41,388 bases of DNA from a virus: positions 1-41,388 of IMG/VR virus record IMGVR_UViG_3300020147_000018; one strand, 5' to 3'. Under the pieces are notes generated by a model. It ran no database searches, was not told the DNA's origin, and was given only the letters and a program-made list of their open reading frames with translations. Positions 452 through 41,093 of this stretch are shown in pieces (the first letter of the stretch is position 1; each line of letters starts with the position of its first letter). The translations under genes and the position numbers were made by a program.

Positions 452-549
452 AAGAACGCAACCCTGAGCCTATGGTTTTTAAGTGGGTAGCAATTCTATT
501 TGGGTTAGGAGTGTGGATGTGGTTTCAACACCCTTGGATTGTTCATTAG
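448..549 (+). CDS. 33-residue single-pass membrane peptide
   Basis: The start overlaps the previous stop (ATGA at 448-451). After a short charged N-terminus, about 20 hydrophobic, tryptophan-rich residues (from FKWVAILFGLGV onward) form one probable membrane helix, and the peptide ends in WIVH. The last codons lie in boundary element A (541-583), so the gene's 3' end is shared with the repeat. Function unknown; small early membrane peptides of phages can act in exclusion or host takeover, which is not shown here. Confidence 0.55.
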   Translation: MKERNPEPMVFKWVAILFGLGVWMWFQHPWIVH

Positions 550-583
550 GTTTCTCGGTAAATAGGTTCATTGCAGAAAGGAC
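541..583 (+). repeat. Boundary element A (opening copy, cassette 584-826)
   Basis: Copy of the dispersed element whose consensus runs, in order, GTTCATTAGGTTACTCGGT, then about 12 variable bases, then GTTGCAGAAAGGA. The terminal AAAGGA is the ribosome binding site of the gene at 584. The matching inverted copy is C at 797-840, at the 3' end of the same gene. Confidence 0.85.
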
Positions 584-826
584 ATGGATATGAGTGCAGA
601 TATGAAGAGTGGCCTTGAATGCTGCCCATATTGCGGCGGAGAAGAGTTTTACAGGAAGGGTTACATGTCAGGTCGTTACGAGTACCACTATAGATTCGAT
701 GGCTCACCTGCAGATAACTCACATCTTCATGACAGCCTCGACTATAGGGAAAACAAAACTCGCTTCTGCAGTAATTGCGACAAGAGACTGCCAAATGTTC
801 TGCAACCCAGCGTCAACGAAGAGTAA
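584..826 (+). CDS. Small zinc-finger protein
   Basis: Eighty residues with CPYCGG near residue 14 and CSNCDK near residue 63, which give a four-cysteine zinc site split by a basic/aromatic loop (YRKGYMSGRYEYHYR). The start ATG sits 4 bases after the AGAAAGGA of boundary element A. The C-terminus (VLQPSVNEE) is encoded by the inverted element C. Phage zinc fingers of this layout are sometimes labelled Lar-like restriction alleviation proteins, but the similarity is only in the CxxC pairs, so no function is assigned. Confidence 0.72.
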   Translation: MDMSADMKSGLECCPYCGGEEFYRKGYMSGRYEYHYRFDGSPADNSHLHDSLDYRENKTRFCSNCDKRLPNVLQPSVNEE

Positions 827-840
827 CCGAATAAACAAGA
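797..840 (+). repeat. Boundary element C (closing, inverted copy, cassette 584-826)
   Basis: Holds the exact 11-mer TTCTGCAACCC, then, after about 12 bases, GAGTAACCGAATAAACAAG. Read on the other strand it matches the opening elements. It covers the last codons of the zinc-finger gene and the space before the gene at 856. Confidence 0.82.
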
Positions 841-855
841 ATCAGGAGGTTTTAG

Positions 856-1020
856 ATGAAACGAGCAATCCTCAAGTTTTACGCTAATGCTAATCCTACA
901 AGAGCTTTAGCAAGATTAAGAATTAGTAAGTCTATGCGTAGAGATGCAGAAAGAGAGATTAGGAATAACTGGATGTATGAAGGATCAAGGACTGATTTTT
1001 TACATTCGGTAGCTCGGTAA
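856..1020 (+). CDS. 54-residue basic protein of unknown function
   Basis: The start is fixed by a near-perfect Shine-Dalgarno (CAGGAGG, 843-849). The product is arginine-rich (ALARLRISKSMRRDAEREIR in the middle) and probably helical, compatible with nucleic-acid binding, but no family is recognised. Its last codons overlap boundary element B (1002-1047). Confidence 0.6.
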   Translation: MKRAILKFYANANPTRALARLRISKSMRRDAEREIRNNWMYEGSRTDFLHSVAR

Positions 1021-1047
1021 ATAGGCAAGGTGCAGAAAGGATAAATC
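1002..1047 (+). repeat. Boundary element B (opening copy, recombination cassette)
   Basis: Reads CATTCGGTAGCTCGGTAAAT, then, after a few bases, GTGCAGAAAGGA, which ends 7 bases before the GTG at 1048. It opens the cassette holding the annealing-associated protein, exonuclease and SSB. Its inverted partner is D (2549-2592) inside the SSB gene. Confidence 0.82.
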
Positions 1048-1566
1048 GTGACTGACAAAACACATTACAGAAAAGCGTTCGATTCGCCCTACTTGAGCAG
1101 CGCAGACATTGTAGAGCCTACCGTATTCACCATCCGCGAGGTACGGCTTGAACCTGACCAGACCAAGAAAACGAAGGATCTGTTCAATACGGCCTACTTT
1201 CAGGAGAAAGAGATTCGCCCTGGAGAAAAGCTGAAGCCGATGATTCTGAATGCCACCAACAGCAAGACCATGAAGGCGCTCACCAACTCCCCATTCATTG
1301 ATGACTGGAAGGGCGTGAGAGTCACGATCTACGTTGACCATAACGTGAGGTTCGGCAAAGAAACATTAGAGGGTTTACGCATCAGCCCACACGCACCTGA
1401 GCGCAAGCAACTCACGCCAAAGAATGAGAAGCAATGGGAGTTGGCAAAGGCCGCATTCAAGCGTGATGGCAACCTCGTTTCAGTTCTTTCGCGGGTTGAT
1501 ATGTCGCCAGAGCATCAGAAACAGCTCATGGCTGAATGCGCCAAGCAAGAGGAAGTCACTGAATGA
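1048..1566 (+). CDS. Conserved phage protein partnered with YqaJ-type exonuclease
   Basis: 172 residues, GTG start chosen because AGAAAGGA of boundary element B lies just upstream. The family signature (THYRK near the start, VFTIREV, a central LNATNSKTMKAL and GLRISPHAP near residue 110) is common directly upstream of phage exonuclease genes. The position suggests a partner in homologous recombination or single-strand annealing, but no Redbeta, Erf or RecT motif is visible, so its activity is unknown. The stop overlaps the exonuclease start (ATGA, 1563-1566). Confidence 0.8.
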   Translation: MTDKTHYRKAFDSPYLSSADIVEPTVFTIREVRLEPDQTKKTKDLFNTAYFQEKEIRPGEKLKPMILNATNSKTMKALTNSPFIDDWKGVRVTIYVDHNVRFGKETLEGLRISPHAPERKQLTPKNEKQWELAKAAFKRDGNLVSVLSRVDMSPEHQKQLMAECAKQEEVTE

Positions 1567-2180
1567 TTTTTCATGACGTAGAGCAGAACACCGAGGAATG
1601 GCACAACTTGCGCATTGGCAAGGCCACAGCGTCTAACTTTGCCTGCTTCATGGCGAACGATGGCAAGGCTTTCGGTGATCCCGCAAAACGCTATGCCCTG
1701 CAAATCGCTCTGGAGCGGCTCACAGGGAAGAAGGCTGAATACAGCTTTTCGAATGAACACATGGAGCGAGGCCACGAACAGGAGCCGGTCGCTCGGATGA
1801 TGTACGAAGAGGAAAGGTATTGCGACGTTGCTAATGGCGGTTTCTTCTGCTGCGGTGAATATGGAGATTCACCAGATGGCAGGGTGGGCAGTGATGGCCT
1901 TGTAGAGATTAAGTCGGTCATTGCTCCCACCCACTACGCCACCATGCAACGTAAGAGTTACGACCCCTCTTACAAGTGGCAGCTAGTAGGCCACCTGGAT
2001 TGCACAGGCCGCGATTGGGTGGACTTTATCAGTTATTGCTCTGACTTCCCCTTTGAAAATCAATTGCTGGTTTACAGGGTAGATAGAGACAGCTTCAAGG
2101 AAGAACTGAAACGCCTGCAAGAACGCAGGGAGCAGTTTCTGGAACTCGTAGAACAAACATTCAACAACCTTAAAGGATAA
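1563..2180 (+). CDS. YqaJ-like (lambda Exo-type) recombination exonuclease
   Basis: 205 residues of the PD-(D/E)XK exonuclease fold used by lambda Exo and YqaJ. The N-terminal EEWHNLRIGKATAS is the usual opening. A GHEQEPVA box lies near residues 70-77, the catalytic D is in GDSPDG (101-106) and EIK at 115-117. It would chew one strand from double-strand ends to make single strands for annealing during replication and circularisation. It sits between the conserved partner protein (4-base overlap) and SSB (3-base gap). All catalytic residues appear present. Confidence 0.92.
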   Translation: MIFHDVEQNTEEWHNLRIGKATASNFACFMANDGKAFGDPAKRYALQIALERLTGKKAEYSFSNEHMERGHEQEPVARMMYEEERYCDVANGGFFCCGEYGDSPDGRVGSDGLVEIKSVIAPTHYATMQRKSYDPSYKWQLVGHLDCTGRDWVDFISYCSDFPFENQLLVYRVDRDSFKEELKRLQERREQFLELVEQTFNNLKG

Positions 2181-2183
2181 ATA

Positions 2184-2639
2184 ATGGCTTCGGTAAATCG
2201 TGTAATTCTCGTTGGTAATTTGGGCCGCGATCCAGAAATGAAATATATGCCTTCTGGCGACGCAGTGACGAACTTCTCTATTGCCACCACCGACACCTGG
2301 AAAGACAAGCAAGGCCAGAAGCAGGAACGCACAGAGTGGCACCGTATCAGCATGTTTGGAAAGCTTGCAGAGATTGCGGGTGAGTATCTGAAGAAGGGTT
2401 CCGCAGTGTACGTTGAGGGCCGCTTACAGACTCACAAGTGGATGGACAAGGATACCGAGGAAGAGAAGCAGCGCACGGAGATTATCGCTGATCGTATGCA
2501 GATGCTAGGCGGCAGGGCTTCGAATGATGATTCCACCGAATCTTCCAGTCCGCAACCCAGCCGTTCAACCGAGAAACCGAATGAACAAAAGGCTTCTGCT
2601 GGTTCTTTCGATGACTTCGAAGACGACATCCCATTCTAG
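2184..2639 (+). CDS. ssb: Single-stranded DNA-binding protein
   Basis: 151 residues. The OB-fold is standard ([17 protein letters not shown] at the start, [13 protein letters not shown] and [12 protein letters not shown] in the core). The flexible linker ends in the acidic tip DDFEDDIPF, which recruits partner proteins in the bacterial family. It protects single strands made by the adjacent exonuclease. Unusually, the linker [15 protein letters not shown] is encoded by an inverted copy of the boundary element (D, 2549-2592). The methyltransferase at 34323-34919 carries the same KPNEQKA string for the same reason. Confidence 0.96.
2549..2592 (+). repeat. Boundary element D (closing, inverted copy, inside ssb)
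   Basis: On the reverse strand it reads GTTCATTCGGTTTCTCGGTT, then GGCTGGGTTGCGGA, close to the consensus over its whole length. It lies in frame in the SSB linker, 47 bases before the stop, and closes the cassette opened by element B. Confidence 0.8.
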
Positions 2640-2648
2640 GCTCTTACC

Positions 2649-3146
2649 ATGACCAAACCTGACATGACGGAAATACTCGCTGATGCTAGAGCTGCTGGCT
2701 TTGCTATCCATGAATGTCATGGGGCAAATCTCATCTTCCCGCAGCCTCTGGGGAATGGATACGTCAACCAAGAGCTAATCAAATTCGCCCAACTCCAGCG
2801 CCAGCGTGAACGTACAGGTGAGGCTGTGCCGGAAGAATGGGATTGCTGTGGCAACTTTGTTGTCGGGGCTGAATACATGGGACAGTGCGAAATGATTTGT
2901 TGCGGCAATCCAGAACCTGCTGGTGTCCCACCCTCACCCCCAAGCAGCAGGGAATTGCTGGAGAAGGCACTAGATAACCTAGAGTCAGCAGCTGACTTCT
3001 GGAAGCAAGTCAAGGCTTCAGATGAGGACACGTCATCAAACGGGGCATTCAAAGATGCTTGGACATGGCTGCAAGAGGCAGCGCTAGGAGTGGTTGAAGC
3101 ACGTGCCCTTCTCCCCCAAGAGCCAAAGGAGGAAGGGAAGTCATGA
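2649..3146 (+). CDS. Conserved early-operon protein, possible two-part architecture
   Basis: 165 residues with no recognised domain. The N-terminal half carries cysteines (DCCGNF, CEMICCGN around residues 65-86) that could bind metal. A short proline/serine linker (PPSPPSS) leads to a helical C-terminal half (LLEKALDNLESAADFWKQ). The C-terminal part resembles the stand-alone helical segments of other early phage proteins, so this may be a fusion. The stop overlaps the ATG at 3143. Confidence 0.7.
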   Translation: MTKPDMTEILADARAAGFAIHECHGANLIFPQPLGNGYVNQELIKFAQLQRQRERTGEAVPEEWDCCGNFVVGAEYMGQCEMICCGNPEPAGVPPSPPSSRELLEKALDNLESAADFWKQVKASDEDTSSNGAFKDAWTWLQEAALGVVEARALLPQEPKEEGKS

Positions 3147-3304
3147 TGAATAAGCAAGATTCGAAAGAAGCAACATCATTAGTTCTTGCGTTGATGACTC
3201 CTGAACAAAGGGAGGAACACATAGCACTTGAAAAGAGGTTTGCTGAATTCTTCAACAGCCTTCCAAAGCGTGAATCCGCCGCCCCTCAAGGAGAACAATC
3301 ATGA
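3143..3304 (+). CDS. 53-residue coupled small protein, unknown
   Basis: The start ATG overlaps the previous stop (ATGA at 3143-3146) and its stop overlaps the next ATG at 3301. The product is charged and helical (TPEQREEHIALEKRFAEFFN). No function is recognised; the tight coupling on both sides is the main evidence that it is translated. Confidence 0.6.
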   Translation: MMNKQDSKEATSLVLALMTPEQREEHIALEKRFAEFFNSLPKRESAAPQGEQS

Positions 3305-3837
3305 GCGAGAAGAATGAATTACTAAGCATCATCCATGACGAGAGCTTGGCCCCAAGAGACAGGTTGCAGCGGATAGCTGTTAGGGTGGAAGCCGCCGCCC
3401 CCGAGCAGGAAGTGGAGCCGGTGTATGTGCTGAAGGACAAGCTGAGAATCTTGAAGATGTGCGGATCATTGCATGTCGTGCTTCACACTTGCATTGGGCA
3501 ACTGATTAAGCCTGCAAGTGAGTATGCGGCGCTCTACCTATCCCCACCCACCGCCGAACAAGCAGCCGCTGATATGAAGCGGAGGTGTATTGAAGTACTG
3601 CAAACTAAGGGGTATTTAACTGAGGGCCTAATAAAGTATATCGAAGCCCTCCCCACATCCGACACAGCAATGGAAGAGATGAGGAGAGATGCAGAGCGGT
3701 GGCAATACTGGCTGAAGAATCACGGCTGGTCAGGATACTTTGATGATGGCGCAAGTAATTATGATGACGCCAAGAATGTAACTAAAGCCATAGATGCCGC
3801 CATTGCTGCTGAGAAGTATCAAACCGAACCCAAGTGA
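3301..3837 (+). CDS. Early-operon protein of unknown function
   Basis: 178 residues, acidic and helical. The C-terminal third (MRRDAERWQYWLKNHGWSGY, then DDAKNVTKAIDAAI) matches a common phage theme of RDAERWR-type small proteins of unknown role, and here it appears joined to a longer N-terminal segment. The start overlaps the previous stop. The stop is in AACCGAACCCAAG, a 13-base string repeated after the gene ending at 6225. Confidence 0.75.
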   Translation: MSEKNELLSIIHDESLAPRDRLQRIAVRVEAAAPEQEVEPVYVLKDKLRILKMCGSLHVVLHTCIGQLIKPASEYAALYLSPPTAEQAAADMKRRCIEVLQTKGYLTEGLIKYIEALPTSDTAMEEMRRDAERWQYWLKNHGWSGYFDDGASNYDDAKNVTKAIDAAIAAEKYQTEPK

Positions 3838-3870
3838 TACAGGGTCTGGGATTTGATGAGCAAAAACAGG

Positions 3871-3923
3871 TTTTGAACATTAGATTGCTCGGTTAACAAG
3901 CCGGGTTGCAGAAAGGACATAAC
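3871..3923 (+). repeat. Boundary element E (opening copy, cassette 3924-4148)
   Basis: Reads TTTTGAACATTAGATTGCTC, continues to GCCGGGTTGCAGAAAGGAC, and carries the exact 11-mer GGGTTGCAGAA. AAAGGA is 6 bases before the GTG at 3924. The inverted partner is F (4107-4150). Confidence 0.85.
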
Positions 3924-4148
3924 GTGGAATGGATTAGTGTAGAGGTAGCCGAGCCAGAATTGGATGTTGATGTTATCGCCATGGATCAGGATGGGGACGT
4001 ATATAAACTTCATCTAGAAGATTTTGATGGGCGCTCCTATTGGTTTGACAGAAGCGGCTATCAGTACGCATTTGTGGATTACTGGATTCCTATTCCACCA
4101 AAGTCTAGTGTTCTGCAACCCACCCCAAACGTAGCAGATACCAAATGA
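3924..4148 (+). CDS. Small acidic protein inside a boundary-element cassette
   Basis: 74 residues. GTG at 3924 is preferred over the upstream TTG at 3906 because the TTG lies before the AGAAAGGA ribosome binding site, not after it. The sequence starts MEWISVEVAEPELDVDVI and has the W(I/V)SVE and DYWIPIPP pattern of a widespread small phage protein family (DUF551-like). It has no known function. Its C-terminal VLQPTPNVADTK is encoded by the inverted element F, like VLQPSVNEE of the gene at 584-826. Confidence 0.75.
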   Translation: MEWISVEVAEPELDVDVIAMDQDGDVYKLHLEDFDGRSYWFDRSGYQYAFVDYWIPIPPKSSVLQPTPNVADTK

Positions 4149-4150
4149 TA
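4107..4150 (+). repeat. Boundary element F (closing, inverted copy)
   Basis: Contains GTTCTGCAACCCACC, the 11-mer TTCTGCAACCC being exact, followed by weaker similarity to the AACCTAATGA half of the element. It overlaps the final codons of the cassette gene. Confidence 0.7.
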
Positions 4151-4164
4151 CGAAAGGAATTGTC

Positions 4165-6018: not shown

Positions 6019-6225
6019 ATGCAACACTCAATACATGCTGCAATGAAAGACATACAAGATTACTTTACATCACATAATGATGTTCCGGTGACAAGGGCTA
6101 CAATCAGACTAGAAGAGTGGCAATTCTTACGCGCACAAATAGATGCGCTTATGATTGAGTATTGCGATCATGAGATGACGCCGGAACAGATTGACGATTG
6201 GGAGGAAAGGCAGATACCTGTCTAA
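6019..6225 (+). CDS. Small acidic protein beside attP
   Basis: 68 residues; the start is supported by AGGAGAG 4 bases upstream. Acidic and helical (TPEQIDDWEERQIPV at the end). No family recognised. After integration it would lie at the end of the prophage opposite int, a usual place for genes expressed in the lysogen. The stop is followed by AACCGAACCCAAG, the string also found at 3826-3838. Confidence 0.65.
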   Translation: MQHSIHAAMKDIQDYFTSHNDVPVTRATIRLEEWQFLRAQIDALMIEYCDHEMTPEQIDDWEERQIPV

Positions 6226-6256
6226 CCGAACCCAAGCCTATTAGTACAGAAGCCAA

Positions 6257-6538
6257 ATGAACAAAACATGGCTCTTGATCTTCGCCCTACTCATCCCCTT
6301 GGCCTCGGAAGCTGGAGAGCGTAGCAGTAGAGCAAGAGCAGACTTCATCCGCCTTAATCCATGCCCAGCTACTGGAAGCAATAAGCCGCACTATGCCTGC
6401 AAAGGATGGGTAGTTGATCACGTAATAGCTTTGGCGTGTGGCGGCTTAGACCATCACTCCAACATGCAATGGCAAACCGTAGCGGATGCAAAGGCAAAGG
6501 ATAAGTGGGAACGTAAGGGTTGTCCGACTAGGCGCTAG
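6257..6538 (+). CDS. Exported HNH-family nuclease
   Basis: 93 residues. A clear Sec signal peptide (NKTWLLIFALLIPLASEA, likely cut after residue 19) precedes a compact nuclease motif: RADFIRLNPCPATGS, then WVVDHVIALACGGLDHHSN and MQWQT. The DH and N of the beta-beta-alpha metal site are present, and four cysteines (about 35, 46, 58, 87) suit disulfides or zinc. It would act in the periplasm or outside. Location next to attP suggests a lysogen-expressed accessory gene. Its 3' end overlaps the convergent DUF1353 gene by 11 bases. Confidence 0.8.
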   Translation: MNKTWLLIFALLIPLASEAGERSSRARADFIRLNPCPATGSNKPHYACKGWVVDHVIALACGGLDHHSNMQWQTVADAKAKDKWERKGCPTRR

Positions 6539-7169: not shown

Positions 7170-7703
7170 CTAGAAACGCGGCCTAACGCTTGCCTCTAAA
7201 GGCGGTTTCTTGGCAGGAAATGCTTGCAATGCGCGGTCGTATTCTTTCAGTAGATTTTCGAGTTTGTGTTCGTGTTGGCCATAGCCAGCACCGGGCAAAC
7301 TTGCCCAAATGTTCTTGCACCGATCAATCGCGGTCTTTATGTCGCCATCAAGGATGCACTGAAACGCCTTCTGCTCTTTTATCTGCTGAATGGCTATGAG
7401 GTCTTGCGCGAGAGGCTCGAAGTTTTTAAGGCCGAGCTTCTTCTTGTAGTAGTCGTAATAGCGGGAAAGGAGCTGATACCTTCCGGCGGCAGTGGATTTA
7501 ATCTTGAGCTTGGGAAGTGATACCAGCTTGCGCGGATGGTCTGCGTAGTCGTCAAAGAACTCTGGCGTTCCCTTGTCATCAAACAGCGCCCCGCCAACGA
7601 TGACGTTGTAGCCATTCTGATTGCCAAAACGGATAGTGCCCTCGCTATAGGCCAGCATATCGAGGAAAGCGCTTACGTTCTTGTTAAGGTCGTAAACGCT
7701 CAT
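7170..7703 (-). CDS. R: Endolysin, lambda R-type lytic transglycosylase
   Basis: 177 residues. It follows lambda R closely: catalytic glutamate E21 in FLDMLAYSEGT, then NVIVGGALFDD, DHPRKLVSLPKLKIKSTAAG, RYQLLSRYYDYY, IDRCKNIWASLPGAGYGQ. It would cleave the glycan strands of peptidoglycan without hydrolysis. There is no signal peptide, so it needs a holin to reach the wall. A roughly 12-residue insertion after LFDD (KGTPEFFDDYA) and a charged C-terminal tail differ from lambda. The start overlaps the stop of the upstream gene. Confidence 0.95.
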   Translation of the reverse strand: MSVYDLNKNVSAFLDMLAYSEGTIRFGNQNGYNVIVGGALFDDKGTPEFFDDYADHPRKLVSLPKLKIKSTAAGRYQLLSRYYDYYKKKLGLKNFEPLAQDLIAIQQIKEQKAFQCILDGDIKTAIDRCKNIWASLPGAGYGQHEHKLENLLKEYDRALQAFPAKKPPLEASVRPRF

Positions 7704-30129: not shown

Positions 30130-30216
30130 GGTTGCTTCCTTTTGTTCATTCGTTCCCGGCTACGGGACAAATGGGTTCGGTTTGATAATTTATTTCTCTT
30201 TTATTTGAAAAAGGTG

Positions 30217-30829: not shown

Positions 30830-31073
30830 AGCGTAATAACGCGGCATAATCTGTAGTACCTCATTCATGAGGCGTGGCGTCGGGATAGCCTCTGACGCTT
30901 TAGTGATGTTCGATTATGGCTGTCACACCCATAAGTCAATCATCTTGGTAGATGGCTGGCTTATGGATTTGTAATTATCTCTAGTGTTTGCGGAAGCCGG
31001 ACCTTTATTTAAAGCCGCTCGCAGGAGACTGTGTTGTAATTGCCAGGTTTGCCGTTTGTAGATAATAGGCAAC

Positions 31074-31110
31074 AAAAAAGCCGCCGAGACGAATCTCAAA
31101 GCGGCTTTTC
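31074..31110. terminator. Bidirectional terminator: end of the moron and late tR'-like stop
   Basis: AGCCGC pairs with GCGGCT and, inside, GAGA with TCTC round a CGAA loop. The minus side ends in six T, the plus side in four T. It therefore ends + transcripts from the moron and also stops minus transcripts from the late promoter after about 65 nt. Confidence 0.85.
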
Positions 31111-31140
31111 ATGTGTTATGGACGTGCGAGGTCCAACGCA
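31079..31140 (-). ncRNA. Short terminated late-leader RNA (6S-RNA-like)
   Basis: Predicted transcript from the promoter at 31147-31175 to the terminator at 31074-31110, about 65 nt. It contains GGAC-CTCGCAC-GTCC (31120-31134) and the terminator hairpin. It is positioned like the lambda pR' leader ahead of tR'. Coordinates of the 5' end are inferred from the -10 box. Confidence 0.6.
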
Positions 31141-31862: not shown

Positions 31863-31916
31863 AAAACCTCCTTTTTGTTCATCACATCTCTGTACTAATT
31901 GGCAGGTTGCCGAGCA

Positions 31917-32087
31917 TTAGAGTTGTGCGCGATTTGTAAACCAGTTGCTTAGTCGCATGGCGAATGATTTCTCTTCATCCGTTCTATCGCCTTTCGAGTC
32001 GATAAGGTTCCAGAGCGCTAGCGCCTCTTCTTTCGTTTCCAGTACCAGGGTGATTGGTTTAAAAGCCTCTTCCTGCATAACCCTCAT
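31917..32087 (-). CDS. 56-residue nin-region small protein
   Basis: AAGGAGAG lies upstream of ATG 32087. The product (FKPITLVLETKEEALALWNL, then DRTDEEKSFAMRLSNWFTNR) matches a recurring phage pattern of one strand and two helices, unknown function. Confidence 0.62.
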   Translation of the reverse strand: MRVMQEEAFKPITLVLETKEEALALWNLIDSKGDRTDEEKSFAMRLSNWFTNRAQL

Positions 32088-32130
32088 CTCATCTCTCCTT
32101 AGTTAAAAGTTCCGGAAAACCATCTGTTTC

Positions 32131-32175
32131 TTGTTCATTTGGTGCCTCGGTAAAAGGCCGGTTGCCTAATGGATG
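32131..32175 (+). repeat. Boundary element K (closing, degenerate copy, cassette 32182-32891)
   Basis: TTGTTCATTTGGTGCCTCGG, continuing through GTAAAAGGCCGGTTGC. It is a degraded match in the orientation opposite to element H, which opens this cassette. It lies directly after the membrane-protein gene. Confidence 0.6.
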
Positions 32176-32181: not shown

Positions 32182-32418
32182 TCATGACACTATCCTTTGC
32201 GCGGCTCTCACGATGTAGCGATTGAACCAGCGCCTTACCGCGTAGCTCCTTGCAACGCTGATGAGCGTGTAGAGAAAACCAATGAAGAAGTTCTGGCCCA
32301 CGCTGATGTTGAAACCGATCAGCGGCAGTATCAGCAGGTTGGCAAAGAAGTTGATCCAGAAGCCAATCAGCACATTGATACAGGCTTCCACAAAAGAACC
32401 TAGTCGGCTTTGGCTCAT
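32182..32418 (-). CDS. DUF7220-like small membrane protein
   Basis: 78 residues with two or three membrane helices (EACINVLIGFWINFFANLLI, LPLIGFNISVGQNFFIGFLY) and a basic C-terminus (YAVRRWFNRYIVRAAQR). The family is common in phages beside nucleotide or nin-type genes; its role is unknown. It overlaps the preceding gene by 4 bases. Confidence 0.78.
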   Translation of the reverse strand: MSQSRLGSFVEACINVLIGFWINFFANLLILPLIGFNISVGQNFFIGFLYTLISVARSYAVRRWFNRYIVRAAQRIVS

Positions 32419-32891
32419 AGCCTCAGTCCCGAATCTGCAACCGTGTAATGCCGTGGGTTCTTGTCTGCGTGTTTGTCCAGCATCGCGCCAGCAGCGGCAT
32501 TCATGGCTGGGTAGAACTCGACAGACTTAGGCGGGCGGTCATCGGCGCACATCCCCTGCATCTGGGCATCTCGGAGTACAGCCAGAGTGCAAAGCGCCTT
32601 TGTCACATGAGACAGGCCCGAATCCGGGTCTATGTCCTCACCTTCCCACCATGCAATCATGTGGCGCATGAGAGCGTCGTAGTACACAGAGGCCCGAACG
32701 CCAGCGCAGCGGTAGTTGTGCCTGCCGTACTTTGCCGCGCCTTCCAGCATCCCCACGCCCATCTCTACAACAACGCCCATAGGCACGGTGGATAGCGGAG
32801 CTTTGCGTGTGCCAATCATGTCCTTCGGATTGGTTGCCTTAACGTCTCGCAACTCTCCAAAGGTTTGTGCTTCTATCGTGTCACCGTCCAC
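32415..32891 (-). CDS. dATP/dGTP diphosphohydrolase-family protein (DUF5664)
   Basis: 158 residues from GTG 32891; the AGAAAGGA of element H precedes it, so the earlier TTG is rejected. NPKDMIGTRKAPLSTVPMGV, EGAAKYGRHNYRCAGVRASV, YYDALMRHMIAWWEGEDIDP and SGLSHVTKALCTLAVL are the conserved blocks of phage dATP/dGTP hydrolase domain proteins. It may adjust the dNTP pool during replication; the exact nucleotide is not visible. The two helices with E and D residues fit an all-alpha pyrophosphohydrolase. Confidence 0.85.
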   Translation of the reverse strand: MDGDTIEAQTFGELRDVKATNPKDMIGTRKAPLSTVPMGVVVEMGVGMLEGAAKYGRHNYRCAGVRASVYYDALMRHMIAWWEGEDIDPDSGLSHVTKALCTLAVLRDAQMQGMCADDRPPKSVEFYPAMNAAAGAMLDKHADKNPRHYTVADSGLRL

Positions 32892-32940
32892 AGCGCTTCC
32901 TTTCTGATCCAAGTTAATCAACCGAGTAACCTAATGTTCC
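32892..32940 (-). repeat. Boundary element H (opening copy, minus strand)
   Basis: Minus strand GAACATTAGGTTACTCGGTT, a variable centre, then CAGAAAGGAAGCGCT before GTG 32891. The first 20 bases match elements G and I almost exactly. Confidence 0.85.
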
Positions 32941-32944
32941 AAAC

Positions 32945-34063: not shown

Positions 34064-34326
34064 GCCGTTACCTCATCTTGGGTTTCTATGGTTTCTGGCA
34101 TGGAGGGTGGATCTATCTTGACCAGCCTGGCCGCATGCACTGCATAACCTTCTGAGTGTCCATATATGAGCGGCACTTTGTTATCTGCACGGCCGCAGTC
34201 ACCGCAAATAGCAAACGAAACCATTGCGTCTGTAACCGTAAATACAGAGCCAATTCTCCCAGCGTGCCCACAACACAGCTGAGGCTTCACTACCATCACC
34301 AAATCGCCAACCTTAATGTCACTCAT
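34060..34326 (-). CDS. Small Cys-rich SH3-like protein
   Basis: 88 residues: KVGDLVMVVKPQLCCGHAGR, IGSVFTVTD, then ICGDCGRADNKV. The valine/glycine pattern looks like an SH3/KOW barrel and the two cysteine pairs could bind zinc. Found in early regions of many phages without known function. It overlaps both neighbours by 4 bases. Confidence 0.68.
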   Translation of the reverse strand: MSDIKVGDLVMVVKPQLCCGHAGRIGSVFTVTDAMVSFAICGDCGRADNKVPLIYGHSEGYAVHAARLVKIDPPSMPETIETQDEVTA

Positions 34327-34919
34327 GCATCATCCCTCTCTGTGTATTCGAGGAGGGAGATGGATTCAATGATAGAAGCTGGGTCAATGGCCTTTTGTTC
34401 ATTAGGTTTCGCTTCGTGGATGCTGGGTTGCAGAACATCCGGCGCGGGTTTCATGAAACAAATCCAGTGCGTGTTGCTCCGCTTGCCAGAGATGTGGCCA
34501 ACTAGCGGCTTAACGTTCGTGAGCTTCAGTATCTCGCTTGTTTTGATCTGGATTTCATTCCACTTGAAGATGAGTACGCCTTCTGGCTTCAACACACGGA
34601 ATGCCTCTGAGAAGCCTTTGCGGATGTCGTCTTGCCAGCTCTCGTTTAGAACTCCGTACTTCTTGGCCATCCAGCTACTCTTGCCCAACACGTTCAGGTG
34701 AGGCGGGTCGAACACGACAACAGCAAATGAGTTATCGGCGAATGGAAGGCTCCTGAAATCCATGTGCATGTCTGGGGTAATTTCCAGCTTGCGCCCATCG
34801 CATAGCGTGTGTTCCTCGGAACGAATGTCCCCAAACAAAACGTCTGGATTGGAGCGGTCGAAGTGGAACATGCGAGAGCCGCAACACATATCCAAAATTG
34901 GTTTTTCTTCTAGTTCCAC
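34323..34919 (-). CDS. Class I SAM-dependent methyltransferase
   Basis: 198 residues from GTG 34919 (AAAGGA of element I precedes it). PILDMCCGSRMF is motif I, DFRSLPFADNSFAVVVFDPPHL carries the DPPH catalytic-type motif, and FSEAFRVLKPEGVLIFKWNE is a typical strand-helix-strand. DPPH/DPPY suggests N6 or N4 methylation of a nucleobase in DNA or RNA. The tail (APDVLQPSIHEAKPNEQKA) is encoded by boundary element J and looks added on. It may protect phage DNA, which is inference. Confidence 0.82.
   Translation of the reverse strand: MELEEKPILDMCCGSRMFHFDRSNPDVLFGDIRSEEHTLCDGRKLEITPDMHMDFRSLPFADNSFAVVVFDPPHLNVLGKSSWMAKKYGVLNESWQDDIRKGFSEAFRVLKPEGVLIFKWNEIQIKTSEILKLTNVKPLVGHISGKRSNTHWICFMKPAPDVLQPSIHEAKPNEQKAIDPASIIESISLLEYTERDDA
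34391..34438 (+). repeat. Boundary element J (closing, inverted copy, inside the methyltransferase gene)
   Basis: Plus strand CCTTTTGTTCATTAGGTTTC, then after about 13 bases GCTGGGTTGCAGAACATCC, which includes the exact 11-mer GGGTTGCAGAA. Inverted relative to element I at the gene's start. It encodes the VLQPSI...KPNEQKA tail. Confidence 0.85.
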
Positions 34920-37029: not shown

Positions 37030-37805
37030 TACTCAGCCCCTGTGAGTTGGTCAATTAACTGGTTCATGGCGTATGTCCATTGCGACCAGTTCCGGCAGTC
37101 TTTAGCTATCTCTGTCAGGTCGTCTTGATCTGCGCCTGCTGCATGAGCCTTCCTGAGCAAAGAGATACACATGCTCTCGTTGCAGTAATGGAATCTGTTA
37201 CGGCATATTCCGCGTATGTAGTAGAGATGTTTATCGTCTACAGGAGAGGTTAAGTTCCTGCATATGCCGCCCACCTTGCTCCAAGTGGCATTGACGCTTT
37301 CATGGGTTAACTTCCCATCAGCATCTGTTCTGAGGTACTGCTCTTTAGCTATTTGGATAGCCTCAAGAAGCTTGTCTAGGGGGAATTTTCTGAGCATGGC
37401 TTTTAGTGCCTTCTCGCCCGTTTCATTTAAGCAGTAGCCCCCAAGATCGGCTTCCCATTCATCATTAGCCACCTGGAATTTCTGCTCGTTAATGCCTTTC
37501 ATTCCATCCCGCCAAGAGAGCATCATTTCAAGCTGCTCCCTACGCTCATTCAGCTCATCCAACATAACGCGCTGTTTGGCTATCGCAGAAGAATCTGAAA
37601 GCTCTCTATCGCTCTTTCCAGAGTTGCACGGTTGGCAAGATGTGATGAGATTCATCAGATCGTTATCACCACCCTTGCTTACAGGATTTATGTGATCAAC
37701 ATGAAGGATCACGTCTGGCGCAGAAGCTCCGCAGTATTGGCACTTGAAGCCATCCCGCTTAAATACTTCGAAACGCAGTTTCTTACTTATTGCTTTCCGC
37801 GCCAT
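37029..37805 (-). CDS. HNH nuclease with long C-terminal domain
   Basis: 258 residues from ATG 37805 (AAAGGA at a proper distance; the ATG at 37811 touches the ribosome site). Residues 1-65 are a full HNH: CQYC at 22-25, LHVDHINPVSKGG at 34-46, N52 and CQPC at 57-60. The C-terminal 190 residues (ELNERREQLEMMLSWRDGMK, LLEAIQIAKEQYLRTDADGK, TWSKVGGICRN) form a helical domain found with this HNH in phage replication regions. It could be a replication or recombination nuclease rather than a selfish one, because the C-terminal domain is conserved. Confidence 0.78.
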   Translation of the reverse strand: MARKAISKKLRFEVFKRDGFKCQYCGASAPDVILHVDHINPVSKGGDNDLMNLITSCQPCNSGKSDRELSDSSAIAKQRVMLDELNERREQLEMMLSWRDGMKGINEQKFQVANDEWEADLGGYCLNETGEKALKAMLRKFPLDKLLEAIQIAKEQYLRTDADGKLTHESVNATWSKVGGICRNLTSPVDDKHLYYIRGICRNRFHYCNESMCISLLRKAHAAGADQDDLTEIAKDCRNWSQWTYAMNQLIDQLTGAE

Positions 37806-37938
37806 ATTCATCCTTTGTTAGTTAGCTAACAGAACAGTCAAAAATCTCTTGTTAATCTATATTTGGCAATTAATCTGCCTGGGTTGGAAGTCCACAAACA
37901 GGCCACAAAAAGTACCTTATGAGGGCCCTCTAAATCCC

Positions 37939-38142
37939 CTACTTGGCCTTCTTAAACTCGTACACCTTTGCTCTGGTTTTACCCGTCTTACTCTTTATCC
38001 TGCGAGCCATGCATGCGCTTATCAGTTGGCTCGCAGCTTCGTCTTCCGTAATTCCATTCAGCTCGGCTATACGCCGCACAAGCTCCATCTCAGCACCCGT
38101 TAATGGCACTTCTTCGGGACTGTTAGGGGCCTTTATAGTCAC
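37939..38142 (-). CDS. Small helical regulator-like protein
   Basis: 67 residues (MTIKAPNSPEEVPLTGAEME, LVRRIAELNGITEDEAASQL) ending in a lysine-rich tail (RRIKSKTGKTRAKVYEFKKA). The pattern suggests a small DNA-binding protein. It lies after another ribbon-helix-helix-like gene in the right early operon. Unknown role. Confidence 0.65.
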   Translation of the reverse strand: MTIKAPNSPEEVPLTGAEMELVRRIAELNGITEDEAASQLISACMARRIKSKTGKTRAKVYEFKKAK

Positions 38143-38156
38143 TATTGAGGGCCCTT

Positions 38157-38384
38157 TCAGGATCCATAACGGGCCAATTTAGGGACTTCAAATGCCACCA
38201 CATTGGGTTGAGAATGTGAGTCACCGAAGAGCACGAGCTTGGCCTGCTCCAGCAGCATCTCGCGGAGTAATGGGGCCATCTCCTCTCCGGTATATGAAAC
38301 GTAGGCCTGAATGAGCGCCTTCTCAGCATCGTTAAAGCGCACCTTTACAACGTGTTCTCTAATCTTGCTTGGGTCTGCGTACAT
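38157..38384 (-). CDS. Ribbon-helix-helix-like regulator
   Basis: 75 residues. REHVVKVRFNDAEKALIQAY then VSYTGEEMAPLLREMLLEQA fit the strand-helix-helix pattern of Arc/MobC-type DNA-binding proteins. It is the first gene beyond the two terminators after cro, the place of cII in lambda, so a role in the lysis-lysogeny choice is possible. The start has AGGA 8 bases upstream. Confidence 0.68.
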   Translation of the reverse strand: MYADPSKIREHVVKVRFNDAEKALIQAYVSYTGEEMAPLLREMLLEQAKLVLFGDSHSQPNVVAFEVPKLARYGS

Positions 38385-38433
38385 GGTTTATTCCTGTTTC
38401 CTAGGGTTGATATTTATGAAACTTGCTACTAAT

Positions 38434-38457
38434 AAAAAAGCCCCGATGCTCTGGGGC
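38434..38457 (-). terminator. Terminator after cro, distal (tR1-like)
   Basis: Minus strand GCCCC-AGAGCATC-GGGGC followed by six T. Second in line for transcription that starts at cro. Confidence 0.88.
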
Positions 38458-38499
38458 AACTCTCACGGAAATCCGAGCCGTATAGCTCAGGTTGAGAAT

Positions 38500-38524
38500 A
38501 AAAAAGGCCCGAGGGGTAACGGGC
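38500..38524 (-). terminator. Terminator after cro, proximal
   Basis: Minus strand GCCCG-TTACCCCT-CGGGC followed by C and six T. It lies 48 bases after the cro-like stop. With the terminator at 38434-38457 it forms a tandem barrier before the replication genes. Confidence 0.86.
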
Positions 38525-38571
38525 GTAAGCCGCCGTAAATGGATGTTCTTGGGAGAACCGGCGGAATGTGT

Positions 38572-38901
38572 TCATTGGATGTCCAATTTGTTGCGGCGGC
38601 CTTTGATGGCCTCGATAAGTTGAACATCACCTTTACGGCGAGTTGGTGTGCGTTTACCTTTGCTCTGCCCAGCCTCGCCTTCATATGGCGGAAAGAAGCA
38701 CAACAGGAGGTCATTACGTGTTATTGAAGAGCCGAAGTGATTCAGAGCCTTTACGAGGCCATCAAAGGTTTCCCTTTGAGGAACCTTGCGCCCATAGATC
38801 AGATGGCTTCCAATGTAGCCAGGCTTCGATTTTGCAATTTCTGCGAACTCTTTCTTTTGTTCGTCAGATAATGACCGCCAGAATGTTTTGAATTTGTCCA
38901 T
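38572..38901 (-). CDS. cro: Cro-like (YdaS-type) regulator
   Basis: 109 residues. FWRSLSDEQKKEFAEIAKSK, PGYIGSHLIYGRKVPQRETF and DGLVKALNHFG give a short HTH domain of the YdaS/Cro kind; the basic C-terminus (GKRTPTRRKGDVQLIEAIKG) may add DNA contacts. It faces the repressor gene across three operators. Its promoter places the start of the RNA at or next to the ATG, so the mRNA is probably leaderless, in line with the missing ribosome binding site. Confidence 0.78.
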   Translation of the reverse strand: MDKFKTFWRSLSDEQKKEFAEIAKSKPGYIGSHLIYGRKVPQRETFDGLVKALNHFGSSITRNDLLLCFFPPYEGEAGQSKGKRTPTRRKGDVQLIEAIKGRRNKLDIQ

Positions 38902-38907
38902 GCCTAA

Positions 38908-38936
38908 ATCTTACCTGACAGGTAAAGTACCGTCAA
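38908..38936 (-). promoter_or_regulatory. cro promoter (pR-like)
   Basis: Minus strand TTGACG (38931-38936), 17 bases, TAAGAT (38908-38913). Operator 38911-38925 covers the spacer and -10 box, so repressor binding would block it. The predicted RNA start is 38900-38902, at the ATG of cro. Confidence 0.75.
38911..38925. promoter_or_regulatory. Operator O1
   Basis: TTACCTGACAGGTAA, a dyad of TTACC/GGTAA arms with five bases between. It overlaps the cro promoter's -10 and spacer. It is the best match in the set and probably the strongest site. Confidence 0.85.
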
Positions 38937-38944
38937 GCAAAACA

Positions 38945-38959
38945 TTACCTGACAGGGCA
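38945..38959. promoter_or_regulatory. Operator O2
   Basis: TTACCTGACAGGGCA shares the first 12 bases with O1, but its right arm is degraded. 34 bases from O1, 16 from O3. Confidence 0.75.
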
Positions 38960-38960
38960 T

Positions 38961-38975
38961 TTACCCCACAGGTAA
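38961..38975. promoter_or_regulatory. Operator O3
   Basis: TTACCCCACAGGTAA has perfect arms and lies nearest to the repressor gene, about 20 bases before its ATG. It suits control of the repressor's own expression. Confidence 0.82.
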
Positions 38976-38995
38976 CGGCGCGTAGCCTTGCGGAC

Positions 38996-39466
38996 ATGAA
39001 AAAGTCGATACCGACCACCCCAGACGTTTACGCCGCTCTACGAGTTGCGTTTGCTAATCTGGTGGCGGCTAGGAAAAAGCAGGGAGAAAATCAGGCGGTA
39101 GTAGCAGAGGCTATTGGCGTGCTGCCTAACTACGTCTCCAACATCGTGAATGGGCGAAAGAATCTAGGCCCGGAAGTTATTGCGCGGATAGATGAGAAGT
39201 ACCCAGGCTGGCGCGACGCCTCTTACGAGCCAAAGCCTGCCGCACCAGAGCAGACAGGCGACGCATACTGGGACACCATAGCGTTCTGCTATAACGGGCT
39301 TACAGAGGGCCACAGAGACATGCTGGCCTACATGGCAAACAAGATGTATACGATGGATAACCCTGGCGCTGTAGATATAGGCACACCAAGGCGCAGGAAG
39401 ACGGATCATATTGATCTTGGAATATTTGAAACAGAAGAATCACAACCAGCTAAAAAACTTGCCTAG
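38996..39466 (+). CDS. cI: Phage repressor (CI analogue) without peptidase domain
   Basis: 156 residues from ATG 38996; upstream codons in the same frame cross the operators and are discarded. The HTH is at about 25-60 (NQAVVAEAIGVLPNYVSNIV, NGRKNLGPEVIARIDEKYPG). The C-terminal part (TIAFCYNGLTEGHRDMLAYM, then basic PRRRKTDHI) has no Ser/Lys LexA-like peptidase, so RecA-driven self-cleavage is unlikely. It should bind the five TTACC-N5-GGTAA sites. Opposite to cro and upstream of a lipoprotein gene 8 bases away. Confidence 0.85.
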   Translation: MKKSIPTTPDVYAALRVAFANLVAARKKQGENQAVVAEAIGVLPNYVSNIVNGRKNLGPEVIARIDEKYPGWRDASYEPKPAAPEQTGDAYWDTIAFCYNGLTEGHRDMLAYMANKMYTMDNPGAVDIGTPRRRKTDHIDLGIFETEESQPAKKLA

Positions 39467-39474
39467 GGGGATCT

Positions 39475-39750
39475 ATGAGAGCACTACTCGTATTACCTTT
39501 GATTCTTGTTGGATGCGCAACTGCCACACCAACCTATGCGCCTGATGGGTCACAAGCGCACAGCCTGAATTGCTCAGGCACCGCCAGAAACTGGGGCATG
39601 TGCTATGAGAAGGCGGGGGAACTTTGCAAGGAGCGCGGCTATGAGGTTGTTGCTGGCGGCACAGATCAAAGCGCCGGAGCGTATGCAAACCGTGAAGGGT
39701 TTTACGCTAGCAGCTCCCATACAAGGAACCTCGTAGTTAAGTGTAAGTAA
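39475..39750 (+). CDS. Lysogen-expressed lipoprotein, possible exclusion factor
   Basis: 91 residues. RALLVLPLILVGCA is a signal sequence with lipobox LVGC (lipidated Cys 14). The mature part has four cysteines (33, 43, 51, 90) for disulfides and a region with YAPDGSQAHSLNCSG, then CKERGYEVVAGGTDQSAG. It is 8 bases after the repressor and has GGGGGAT upstream, so it should be made in the lysogen. Surface lipoproteins at this place often block superinfection; the function is not proven. Confidence 0.78.
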   Translation: MRALLVLPLILVGCATATPTYAPDGSQAHSLNCSGTARNWGMCYEKAGELCKERGYEVVAGGTDQSAGAYANREGFYASSSHTRNLVVKCK

Positions 39751-40011
39751 TCACGGCCCCTCCTTCAGTATCAGTCCGTCATTCCTTGCGCGGTCGCTGA
39801 TAGAAGCGAACAACTGTCCTACCACACAGGCCGCCACGTGCGGCTGTTCGCAATAGTCTCCAGCAATCCCCATCCCGTGCTTCTTGGTGCTTATTTTCAC
39901 CGCATAAGCCATTCCTGACACCTCTCCACTCCTGGCCTTCCTAAGCAGGGATTCCAGAGCTTCGATAATCTCCCGATTCCGATATTCAACGATGCTCGTA
40001 ACTGTCTGCAT
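39751..40011 (-). CDS. Small protein convergent with the lipoprotein gene
   Basis: 86 residues from ATG 40011, chosen for GAGGAG upstream. SIVEYRNREIIEALESLLRK then GMAYAVKISTKKHGMGIAGD, CEQPHVAACVVGQLFASI is a pattern of small early phage proteins. It ends base-to-base against the lipoprotein stop (39750/39751). Possible promoter TTGAGA-N18-TAATCT upstream, weak. Function unknown. Confidence 0.65.
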   Translation of the reverse strand: MQTVTSIVEYRNREIIEALESLLRKARSGEVSGMAYAVKISTKKHGMGIAGDYCEQPHVAACVVGQLFASISDRARNDGLILKEGP

Positions 40012-40133
40012 AGCCGTCTCCTCAAGCCTCAACTTCCCCCTTAGATAGATTAGCGGCTCAGGTAATTAGTTCTCAATGCCACCTGTCGGGGCATTCCTTC
40101 CACTCATCTCAAAAGTAACTTTTTGTTAAAATA

Positions 40134-40148
40134 TTACCTACTGGGTAT
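40134..40148. promoter_or_regulatory. Operator OL1 (left)
   Basis: TTACCTACTGGGTAT matches the TTACC-N5-GGTAA dyad at all but the last base. It abuts the -35 box of the left promoter at 40148. Confidence 0.8.
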
Positions 40149-40175
40149 TGCAATATGTTACCCGTTAGGTATAAT
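40148..40175 (+). promoter_or_regulatory. Left early promoter (pL-like)
   Basis: TTGCAA (40148-40153), 16 bases, a perfect TATAAT (40170-40175). Both left operators overlap it (40134-40148 and 40158-40172), so repressor would shut it. It drives the structured leader and the recombination/integration operon. The predicted start is about 40182. Confidence 0.88.
40158..40172. promoter_or_regulatory. Operator OL2 (left)
   Basis: TTACCCGTTAGGTAT lies in the spacer and -10 of the left promoter, 24 bases from OL1. It differs from the consensus arm only in the last base. Confidence 0.8.
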
Positions 40176-40181
40176 GGCATT

Positions 40182-40490
40182 CATCAACTAAGCAATTAGT
40201 TGGCTAGCAAACCCGAGGAATTAGCCGCCGATGGGTAGTTACCGGAACACAGGTAATCAGAAGGAGGCCGCTGTTTCAGAGTGAGTAGGTTGCTAGGTAG
40301 TCAGTAGTAAGGAGAGGCGGCGTGGAAGGACACGCGGACGGTAAGTTAGGCGGCCCAGGCACTTAACCTGGTATCCCCTGATGCCACGGGATGAGCAGAG
40401 TCTAGATGAAGCTCTGAACGAGGGCTAAGTCGCCAGAGGCGCACTGAGTTGGTTTCGAATCCATCCCTCTCCTTACTGCTGACTAGTTGG
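40182..40490 (+). ncRNA. Large structured leader RNA downstream of the left promoter
   Basis: No open frame of note here. Predicted folds: (1) CAACTAA-GCAA-TTAGTTG, 40185-40202, a perfect stem with a GNRA loop at the very 5' end; (2) a stem of nine pairs, 40204-40213 with 40288-40296, around a TTACC/GGTAA hairpin (40239-40256); (3) next to it a 20-pair stem, 40298-40317 with 40466-40485, one G-U only, closing a junction. Inside it: GCGTG/CACGC (40320-40335), CCAGG/CCTGG (40355-40371), ATCCC/GGGAT (40373-40392), CAGAG/CTCTG (40396-40416), and AGTCGCC with GGCGCACT (40428-40445). Candidates: antitermination RNA (put-like), small RNA, or tRNA-like element. None is proven. Confidence 0.7.
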
Positions 40491-40544
40491 ATGCTCAGCA
40501 ATGAGTGTCAACGATAGTGAAGCTAGATGAACAAGAACAAAGGG

Positions 40545-40596
40545 TTTTGAACATTAGGTTACTCGGTAAATAGGCCGGGTTGCAGAAAGGGAACGT
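40545..40596 (+). repeat. Boundary element G (opening copy, cassette 40597-41093)
   Basis: TTTTGAACATTAGGTTACTC, then GGTAAATAGGCC, then GGGTTGCAGAAAGGGAACGT before ATG 40597. It is the most complete copy and contains the exact 11-mer GGGTTGCAGAA. The inverted partner is N (41063-41087). Confidence 0.88.
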
Positions 40597-40902
40597 ATGG
40601 GAACGCCACATTTAAGCGAGAAGGTTATTTACGAGGCAGCAGACCGTGCAGAGCGTGAGCGCAATCTGGCACTAGGCGATATATGCGATGCCATCCGCTT
40701 TAGCAAGCTAGACCTTACAAGCATGGATGACGATGCCTTTGAGCTGGCTAATGAAACCTTCCGCATCCTGAATGATGAAGAGGATGACAAGGAAGGCCGG
40801 ATTCGTGACCTGTACGACGCACGAGTATGGAAGCTGGCTGAGTGGGTGCATGACGATGGCGGCTACTACGCAAACCAACTGAAAAGAAAGCTGGGGCTGT
40901 GA
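40597..40902 (+). CDS. First gene of the left operon, acidic early protein
   Basis: 101 residues. It is acidic and helical (SKLDLTSMDDDAFELANETF, RILNDEEDDKEGRIRDLYDA) with the basic end NQLKRKLGL. No family recognised. The ribosome binding site is supplied by boundary element G. Its stop overlaps the next start (TGATG, 40900-40904). Confidence 0.7.
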   Translation: MGTPHLSEKVIYEAADRAERERNLALGDICDAIRFSKLDLTSMDDDAFELANETFRILNDEEDDKEGRIRDLYDARVWKLAEWVHDDGGYYANQLKRKLGL

Positions 40903-41093
40903 TGTACGGCATCTTCCACCGTTCCTATAACCATCAGGGCGAGCTGCGATGGAGATTCATAGGCATCTATGGCCATGAAATGAGCCATACCCACGTTGAG
41001 CGATTCGGTGATGAGACCGTGGTGACTTGCAGGATAAAAAAATCGCCCAAAAGAGCCTTTACGTTCTGCAAACCACCTGCTTATTACATGTGA
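40902..41093 (+). CDS. Small beta-rich early protein
   Basis: 63 residues from ATG 40902, coupled by TGATG to the gene before; the overlapping GTG at 40899 would add one residue. MYGIFHRSYNHQGELRWRFI, then HVERFGDETVVTCRIKKSPK, look like a small barrel. The end FCKPPAYYM is encoded by the closing boundary element N. Function unknown. Confidence 0.65.
   Translation: MYGIFHRSYNHQGELRWRFIGIYGHEMSHTHVERFGDETVVTCRIKKSPKRAFTFCKPPAYYM
41063..41087 (+). repeat. Boundary element N (closing, inverted, partial copy)
   Basis: GTTCTGCAAACCACC matches GTTCTGCAACCCACC of element F with one change. The remaining half is weak. It covers the last codons of the second gene in the cassette opened by element G. 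Confidence 0.55.

What the first reader, a model, noticed from the sequence alone, without database searches (positions are those of the whole stretch)
541..41087. Six gene cassettes are bracketed by inverted copies of one 45-base element
Opening copies (A 541, B 1002, E 3871, G 40545 on +; H 32940, I 34970 on -) end at the start codon of a gene. Closing copies in the opposite orientation (C 797, D 2549, F 4107, N 41063; K 32131, J 34391) lie at the end of the same gene or gene group. The pairs enclose 584-826, 1048-2639, 3924-4148, 40597-41093, 34323-34919 and 32182-32891. The exact 11-mer GGGTTGCAGAA or its complement occurs in C, E, F, G and J; about 0.02 copies would be expected by chance in both strands of 41 kb with even base use. 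Lambdoid phages have short boundary sequences between genes thought to help module exchange. Inverted bracketing of each module, on both strands and in both early operons, is to my knowledge not a described feature.
Basis: partly seen in the sequence, partly recalled or inferred. Interest (0 to 1): 0.86.

Follow-up and report, generated by a model that had tools for sequence, protein, structure and literature searches.

The report
Inverted repeats bracket swappable phage genes
A small family of temperate phages places one 45-base sequence before, and its mirror copy at the end of, each exchangeable gene, and comparing seven family members shows that unrelated genes have been swapped in and out with the joints falling inside that sequence.

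Summary
The repeat is real. A matrix built only from the six opening copies predicts closing copies D, J, C and K at 30-37 bits, against a best of 21.9 in 100 random sequences. F is a half-decayed copy; N is not supported, so five of the six pairs stand. Six further IMG/VR contigs carry the element. In all there are 42 copies: 18 openers (ribosome-binding site and start codon at the inner end) and 24 closers (antisense, at gene 3' ends). At one locus five unrelated genes sit between nearly identical elements: elements 81-100% identical, gene sequence just inside 37-53%, against 46% for random 90-mers. The closer is usually translated, so unrelated proteins share one C-terminal tail. One opener is an exact chimera of two tandem openers, joined within 12 shared bases; another joins halves belonging to two loci. 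A relative with a different annealing-protein candidate and SSB keeps the same brackets. Best reading: homology blocks at which cassettes are exchanged, most likely by phage-encoded annealing recombination (inferred). No promoters, terminators, attC boxes, target duplications or pair-specific RNA pairing were found. It is a new, systematic, inverted and ectopic variant of phage 'boundary sequences'.

The parts
537..582 (+). Opener A (leader and ribosome-binding site of gene 584-826); also ends the upstream ORF at TAG
   Evidence: nhmmer E 5.8e-9; sequence
584..826 (+). Cassette gene, small zinc-ribbon-like protein (phrog_9107); C-terminus LPNVLQPSVNEE is encoded by closer C
   Evidence: phrog_9107 4.5e-13; translation
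798..840 (-). Closer C (type 2 core), inverted copy inside the 3' end of the gene
   Evidence: 30.5 bits vs shuffle maximum 21.9
996..1041 (+). Opener B; also ends upstream ORF 856-1020 at TAA
   Evidence: E 4.8e-9
1048..2639 (+). Bracketed recombination block: phrog_21613 (1048-1566), YqaJ exonuclease (1563-2180), SSB (2184-2639)
   Evidence: phrogs and Pfam
2548..2592 (-). Closer D, in the SSB linker ([16 protein letters not shown]) before the acidic tail
   Evidence: 36.6 bits; in L004 the same place holds a type 2 core
3871..3916 (+). Opener E
   Evidence: E 6.6e-9
3924..4148 (+). Cassette gene; homologue of the DUF551 genes that sit in other brackets in relatives
   Evidence: phrog_924 3.9e-7; 37% identical to DUF551 protein L004:5863
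4110..4150 (-). Closer F, inner half only (VLQPT)
   Evidence: exact 11-mer; 18.9 bits, not beyond chance alone; inner extension shared with G002
6231..6265 (-). Additional weaker closer (type 3) at the end of ORF 6019-6225
   Evidence: E 1.8e-3
31874..31913 (+). Possible degenerate closer after gene 31917-32087 (-)
   Evidence: 7.6 bits only
32128..32170 (+). Closer K, just downstream of gene 32182-32418 (-)
   Evidence: 30.0 bits
32182..32891 (-). Cassette: dATP/dGTP diphosphohydrolase-like gene plus DUF7220 gene
   Evidence: PF18909 7e-25, PF23858 1.8e-26
32894..32944 (-). Opener H
   Evidence: E 6.5e-8
34323..34919 (-). Cassette gene, DNA methyltransferase; tail SLLEYTERDDA encoded beyond closer J
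   Evidence: phrog_954 1.8e-79; tail shared with unrelated genes in relatives
34391..34437 (+). Closer J (type 2 core), in frame as VLQPSIHEAKPNEQK
   Evidence: 31.2 bits
34923..34971 (-). Opener I
   Evidence: E 1.8e-9
40545..40590 (+). Opener G, first early gene; no valid closer (L004 has opener-DUF551-closer at this place)
   Evidence: E 3.4e-11; comparison

Best explanation
A roughly 45-bp DNA element is scattered through both early regions of this phage family. In sense orientation it is the leader and ribosome-binding site of a cassette gene; in antisense orientation it forms the end of the same gene, usually translated as a (V/S)(L/P)QPS..KPNEQK linker. The copies act as interchangeable blocks of homology. 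Recombination between like-oriented copies (opener with opener, closer with closer), in one genome or between two phages, swaps, inserts or deletes one cassette and always leaves a complete leader-gene-tail unit. SHOWN: the repeats, their fixed orientation, exchange of unrelated genes between conserved elements, and breakpoints inside the element, including chimeric openers. INFERRED: that the phage's own exonuclease/annealing/SSB genes do the exchange, and that the inverted layout is kept because opener-closer recombination can only invert a cassette, not delete it.
For: Opener-only matrix finds the closers. 42 copies in 7 phages, 18 openers all with AGAAAGG and a start codon, 24 closers all antisense at gene ends. 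At the methyltransferase locus the second cassette is HNH (L004), N4/N6 methylase (L090, L118), gene Y (L092), DUF551 (L116) or gene Z (L138), with unrelated coding sequence abutting closers 81-100% identical and one shared tail. P1 and P2 cassettes also differ between window, L004 and G002 inside conserved elements. L138's opener is 37/40 identical outside to opener 1 and 28/30 inside to opener 2 of L092, joined in CGGTTACTCGGT; G002's P3 opener has the outer flank TAGGGAAGATT of P2 openers and the inner half of P3 openers. Core type at the SSB closer differs between window and L004. DUF551 genes occupy different brackets in different phages. The closer is read in another frame in L093 3495-3998, so the conserved thing is DNA. 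The window encodes a YqaJ exonuclease and an SSB and so does G002. Phage annealing proteins recombine short diverged homology (PMC3945230: minimal pairing segment 23-27 bp for Redbeta).
Against: Perfect identity between present-day copies is often shorter (12 bp at the L138 joint) than the 23-27 bp reported for Redbeta. Annealing activity of phrog_21613 is unproven (OB-like but non-significant fold hits). Some cassette edges (3' end of P3; the start of the gene after the shared tail) are conserved boundaries without the element. Only seven contigs from three metagenome datasets. Exchange at a site does not prove that the site is maintained for exchange.
Confidence: 0.72

Rival explanations
1. 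The element is kept for gene expression: a translation-initiation leader (openers) and a 3' regulatory or protecting element (closers, perhaps pairing with the leader). The exchanges at the element are a side effect of its being a repeated conserved sequence.
For: Every opener carries a ribosome-binding site and start codon. Openers and closers are complementary in the same transcript. Mycobacteriophage start-associated sequences show that repeated leaders exist (PMC3203893).
Against: Opener and closer of one bracket are no more complementary than random pairs in the same genome (0.68 vs 0.70). Closers lack the ribosome-binding site, are inside coding sequence, and vary between three core types at one locus. 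No promoter or terminator lies on the elements. No Rfam match.
Confidence: 0.15
2. Each cassette is a mobile element with terminal inverted repeats, moved by a transposase or recombinase supplied in trans (MITE-like).
For: Inverted repeats flank single genes; related DUF551 genes appear in different brackets.
Against: No target-site duplication at the outer ends; no transposase seen; replaced cassettes leave the element and outer flank in place; joints fall in the middle of the element, not at its outer edge; outer flank is conserved per locus.
Confidence: 0.04
3. Integron-like gene cassettes whose closer is an attC site.
For: Single genes with a repeated sequence at the 3' end; CALINs occur in phages (PMC9892861).
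Against: RYYYAAC and GTTRRRY boxes are absent from 10 of 11 elements (D has one matching box, without its partner); the same sequence also stands before the gene; no integron integrase.
Confidence: 0.01
4. The elements are shared remnants of a common ancestor, and illegitimate recombination plus selection for intact genes explains why joints fall at gene ends.
For: Some cassette borders lack the element (P3 end); gene-edge joints are the usual pattern in phages.
Against: Joints lie inside a repeated sequence, including inside translated closers and in the middle of openers; elements at different loci are homologous to each other, which descent at each locus does not explain.
Confidence: 0.08

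Closest known systems
Boundary or linker sequences of lambdoid phages (Susskind and Botstein 1978; Clark et al. 2001, as cited in PMC3029335)
   Same: Short conserved sequences at module borders, proposed homology for module exchange
   Different: To my knowledge those are specific to each border and not copies of each other; here one element family is used at all borders, in inverted pairs, on both strands, and is translated in closers
SAS/ESAS of Cluster K mycobacteriophages (PMC3203893)
   Same: Repeated leader next to start codons of many early genes, lineage-specific
   Different: The 13-bp SAS and the 17-bp inverted repeats both lie upstream of the start; no inverted copy at the gene end; a translation role is suspected there
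Mobile regulatory cassettes of T4-type phages (Arbiol et al. 2010; from memory, paper not held)
   Same: Repeated intergenic cassettes thought to mediate gene shuffling by homology
   Different: Those carry early promoters and terminators; none found here
Relaxed homologous recombination by Rad52-like phage recombinases (PMC3945230)
   Same: Machinery and short diverged homology that could do the exchange
   Different: Describes exchange in chance homology, not a dedicated repeated bracket
Integron gene cassettes and phage CALINs (PMC9892861)
   Same: Single-gene cassettes with a repeated 3' sequence
   Different: No R boxes, no integrase, element also at the 5' end

Membership tests
Phage boundary/linker sequences | Conserved short sequence between modules that are themselves non-homologous | tested here: met
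   Element 81-100% identical with unrelated coding sequence inside at the methyltransferase locus
Phage boundary/linker sequences | Exchange breakpoints inside the sequence | tested here: met
   Chimeric openers L138 and G002 P3
Phage boundary/linker sequences | Exchange shown experimentally to use the sequence | not testable with these tools
   No bench data
SAS/ESAS | 13-bp GGGATAGGAGCCC next to start codons, optional inverted repeats upstream | tested here: not met
   Different sequence; the inverted copy lies at the gene's 3' end
T4 mobile regulatory cassettes | Early promoter plus terminator in the intergenic cassette | tested here: not met
   No promoter-like site on any element in the scanned regions; one weak terminator-like match (34381-34393, + strand, antisense to the gene) overlaps the outer edge of J (sigma-70 consensus only)
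Integron cassettes (attC) | RYYYAAC...GTTRRRY core boxes | tested here: not met
   Absent in 10 of 11 elements; D has an unpaired match
Terminal-inverted-repeat transposon or MITE | Target-site duplication outside the repeats | tested here: not met
   Outer flanks of A-C, B-D, H-K, J-I share no direct repeat
Terminal-inverted-repeat transposon or MITE | A transposase acting on the repeats | tested here: inconclusive
   No transposase among the proteins examined; not every gene was scanned

The most novel reading that the evidence does not exclude
The phage family has evolved a dedicated gene-exchange architecture: one universal homology block in inverted pairs lets its own annealing recombinase swap any cassette into any bracket, in either early region and on either strand, while the inverted layout protects cassettes from deletion and the translated closer gives every incoming protein a ready-made tail and stop.
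Probability: 0.35. Interest if true: 0.88.

Novelty: new variant of a known kind. Interest (0 to 1): 0.74.

Why it matters
Whether phage mosaicism arises at dedicated short homologies or at random followed by selection is a long-standing dispute (summarised in PMC3029335, which notes that boundary sequences cannot be found at most mosaic joints). Here is a phage family in which one repeated, invertedly paired element marks most accessory cassettes and in which individual joints can be read, so the dispute becomes directly testable. It also shows a route by which unrelated proteins acquire a common C-terminal tail.

Tried and rejected
N as closer: rejected. Pair-specific opener-closer RNA duplex: rejected, within-bracket similarity 0.68 vs 0.70 between brackets. 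Known RNA family: none. attC boxes and target duplications: not found. Promoters or terminators on the elements: no promoter; one weak antisense terminator-like match at the edge of J. Protein-level linker conservation as the sole cause: unlikely, since the closer is read in another frame in L093 and the sense copies are untranslated leaders. The element in other phages: no blastn hit in INPHARED; pattern hits in genome contigs resembled chance or an unrelated repeat (Devosia and others) and none carried multiple copies. Analogous element families of other sequence in phages sharing phrog_21613: a self-comparison screen gave only intragenic repeats or one large inverted duplication in the loci inspected. 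phrog_21613 as a proven annealing protein: AlphaFold model moderate (pLDDT 76), best PDB hits PriB/SSB-like but E above 0.1, so not claimed. Two early pattern scans of viral contigs returned mostly chance hits.

Full report
SETTING. The window is one virus record of 41,388 bases. Its ends overlap by about 120 bases after a few mismatches, so it is probably a complete circular assembly. It is a temperate phage with integrase, portal, scaffold, capsid and virion genes, and early genes on both strands. Nothing near it is in the INPHARED phages at the DNA level. The block 1048-2639 encodes phrog_21613, a YqaJ exonuclease and an SSB.

THE ELEMENT. Consensus TTTTGTTCATTAGGTTNCTCGGTNNATAGGCYGGGTTGCAGAA. 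I built a matrix from the six openers only and scanned both strands. Besides its six training copies it found D (36.6 bits), J (31.2), C (30.5) and K (30.0); the best score in 100 Markov-1 sequences was 21.9; F scored 18.9 and N did not appear. The 11-mer count of five is confirmed, 0.02 expected. F is accepted because of its exact 11-mer and its inner extension TTCCACC..TGTTCTGCAACC, which the closer of relative G002 also has. N is rejected.

RELATIVES. Searching viral contigs with protein and DNA patterns gave six further contigs with the element: IMGVR_UViG_3300020152_000052 (L004/L093, handle G001), _000120 (L090), _000135 (L092), _000064 (L116), 3300020156_000142 (L118) and 3300020131_000004 (L138/L139, handle G002). 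A profile search lists 42 copies at E below 0.05 (profile seeds come from these phages). All 18 sense copies have AGAAAGG and a start codon 2-7 nt on. The other 24 stand antisense at gene 3' ends. In most closers the CAA codon falls in the same frame, giving (V/S)(L/P)QPS..KPNEQK, but L093 3495-3998 reads the same DNA in another frame (CSATQHPEAVTE). So the conserved thing is DNA. Three core types exist: CTCGGTNNATAGGC, TTCGTGGATGC and CTGTGCTAATGGGC.

GENE EXCHANGE. At the methyltransferase locus the upstream and downstream sequences are shared, but the second cassette is an HNH gene (L004), an N4/N6 methylase (L090, L118), an unknown gene Y (L092), DUF551 (L116) or an unknown gene Z (L138). 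Each is followed by the same closer and a shared tail such as SERSEYASRDDA. Pairwise identity across the element is 81-100% (excluding the identical pair L090-L118). It falls to 37-53% just inside the gene, where random 90-mers give 46% with sd 3%. The window has a single methyltransferase cassette here with a tail related to the others. At P1, L004 has DUF551 and G002 an unrelated gene, both ending ..QFTEQQN(V/E)QKEQL from elements 93% identical. At P2, window, L004 and G002 carry three different contents between related openers and a shared outer flank. G002 has a different SSB (36% identical) and an unrelated annealing-protein candidate, yet its SSB carries the closer in the same linker.

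JOINTS INSIDE THE ELEMENT. L004, L090 and L092 have two tandem cassettes with openers O1 and O2; L138 has one. L138's opener is 37/40 identical to O1 (L004, L092) outside and 28/30 to O2 (L092) inside, the joint lying in the 12 bases CGGTTACTCGGT common to both. That is what O1 x O2 recombination deleting cassette 1 would leave (or its reverse, insertion). G002's P3 opener has the outer flank TAGGGAAGATT, otherwise seen only at P2 openers in these relatives, and the inner half of P3 openers: ectopic exchange. The SSB closer has a type 1 core in the window and type 2 in L004.

MECHANISM. Like-oriented recombination (opener x opener, closer x closer) always yields intact leader-gene-tail units; opener x closer within a genome can only invert the cassette. 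This logic, and the presence of exonuclease and SSB genes in the window and in G002, suggest phage annealing recombination. Redbeta needs 23-27 bp of pairing and tolerates divergence (PMC3945230). The element is long enough in total, but present-day perfect matches are often shorter, which is a weakness. The machinery is inferred.

ALTERNATIVES. Regulation by leader-tail pairing is not supported by pair-specific complementarity and no promoter lies on the elements. Transposon ends and attC sites fail their defining tests. Descent plus illegitimate recombination cannot explain homology between elements at different loci or the chimeras, though some borders (P3 end, CCCATGAGCGCATGTTATAGACAGCAAC) are conserved without the element.

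NOVELTY. Boundary sequences as exchange points are an old proposal (PMC3029335 and references therein). Repeated leaders are known (SAS/ESAS, PMC3203893). I found no report of one element family bracketing cassettes in inverted pairs, translated at one end and serving as leader at the other; only open-licence papers could be searched. I file it as a new variant of a known kind.

Noticed in passing
window 1-125 and 41268-41388: The two ends repeat each other for about 120 bases after a few mismatches: circular assembly, so opener G and opener A belong to one operon across the junction.
   Followed up: partly
window 40180-40540; L004 5280-5800: Long non-coding leader between the divergent early region and the first early gene, of different sequence in the two phages; function unknown.
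   Followed up: no
window 30830-31130; L116 2480-2760; L138 4330-4980: Non-coding stretch downstream of the left early operon; no tRNA or Rfam match in the window; possible late-promoter or leader region.
   Followed up: no
window 38906-38965: Repeated TTACCTGACAGGTAA-like sites in front of the repressor-like gene 38888-39466, probable operators.
   Followed up: no
L004 7958-7992; G002 (reverse of L139) 7520-7552: A second conserved boundary (CCCATGAGCGCATGTTATAGACAGCAAC) ends the P3 cassette, unrelated to the 45-base element.
   Followed up: partly
L116 46-336, L004 5863-6105, L004 7609-7980, window 3924-4148: DUF551-type genes occupy four different positions in three phages; their function is unknown.
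   Followed up: partly
window 30141-30181: Weak closer-like sequence (TTTTGTTCATTCG..GGGTTCGG, 7.3 bits) at the late/early border; may be decayed.
   Followed up: no
L055 130-496 and 7921-8844: Clustered inverted matches in an unrelated phage that also encodes phrog_21613; looks like a large inverted duplication, not brackets.
   Followed up: no
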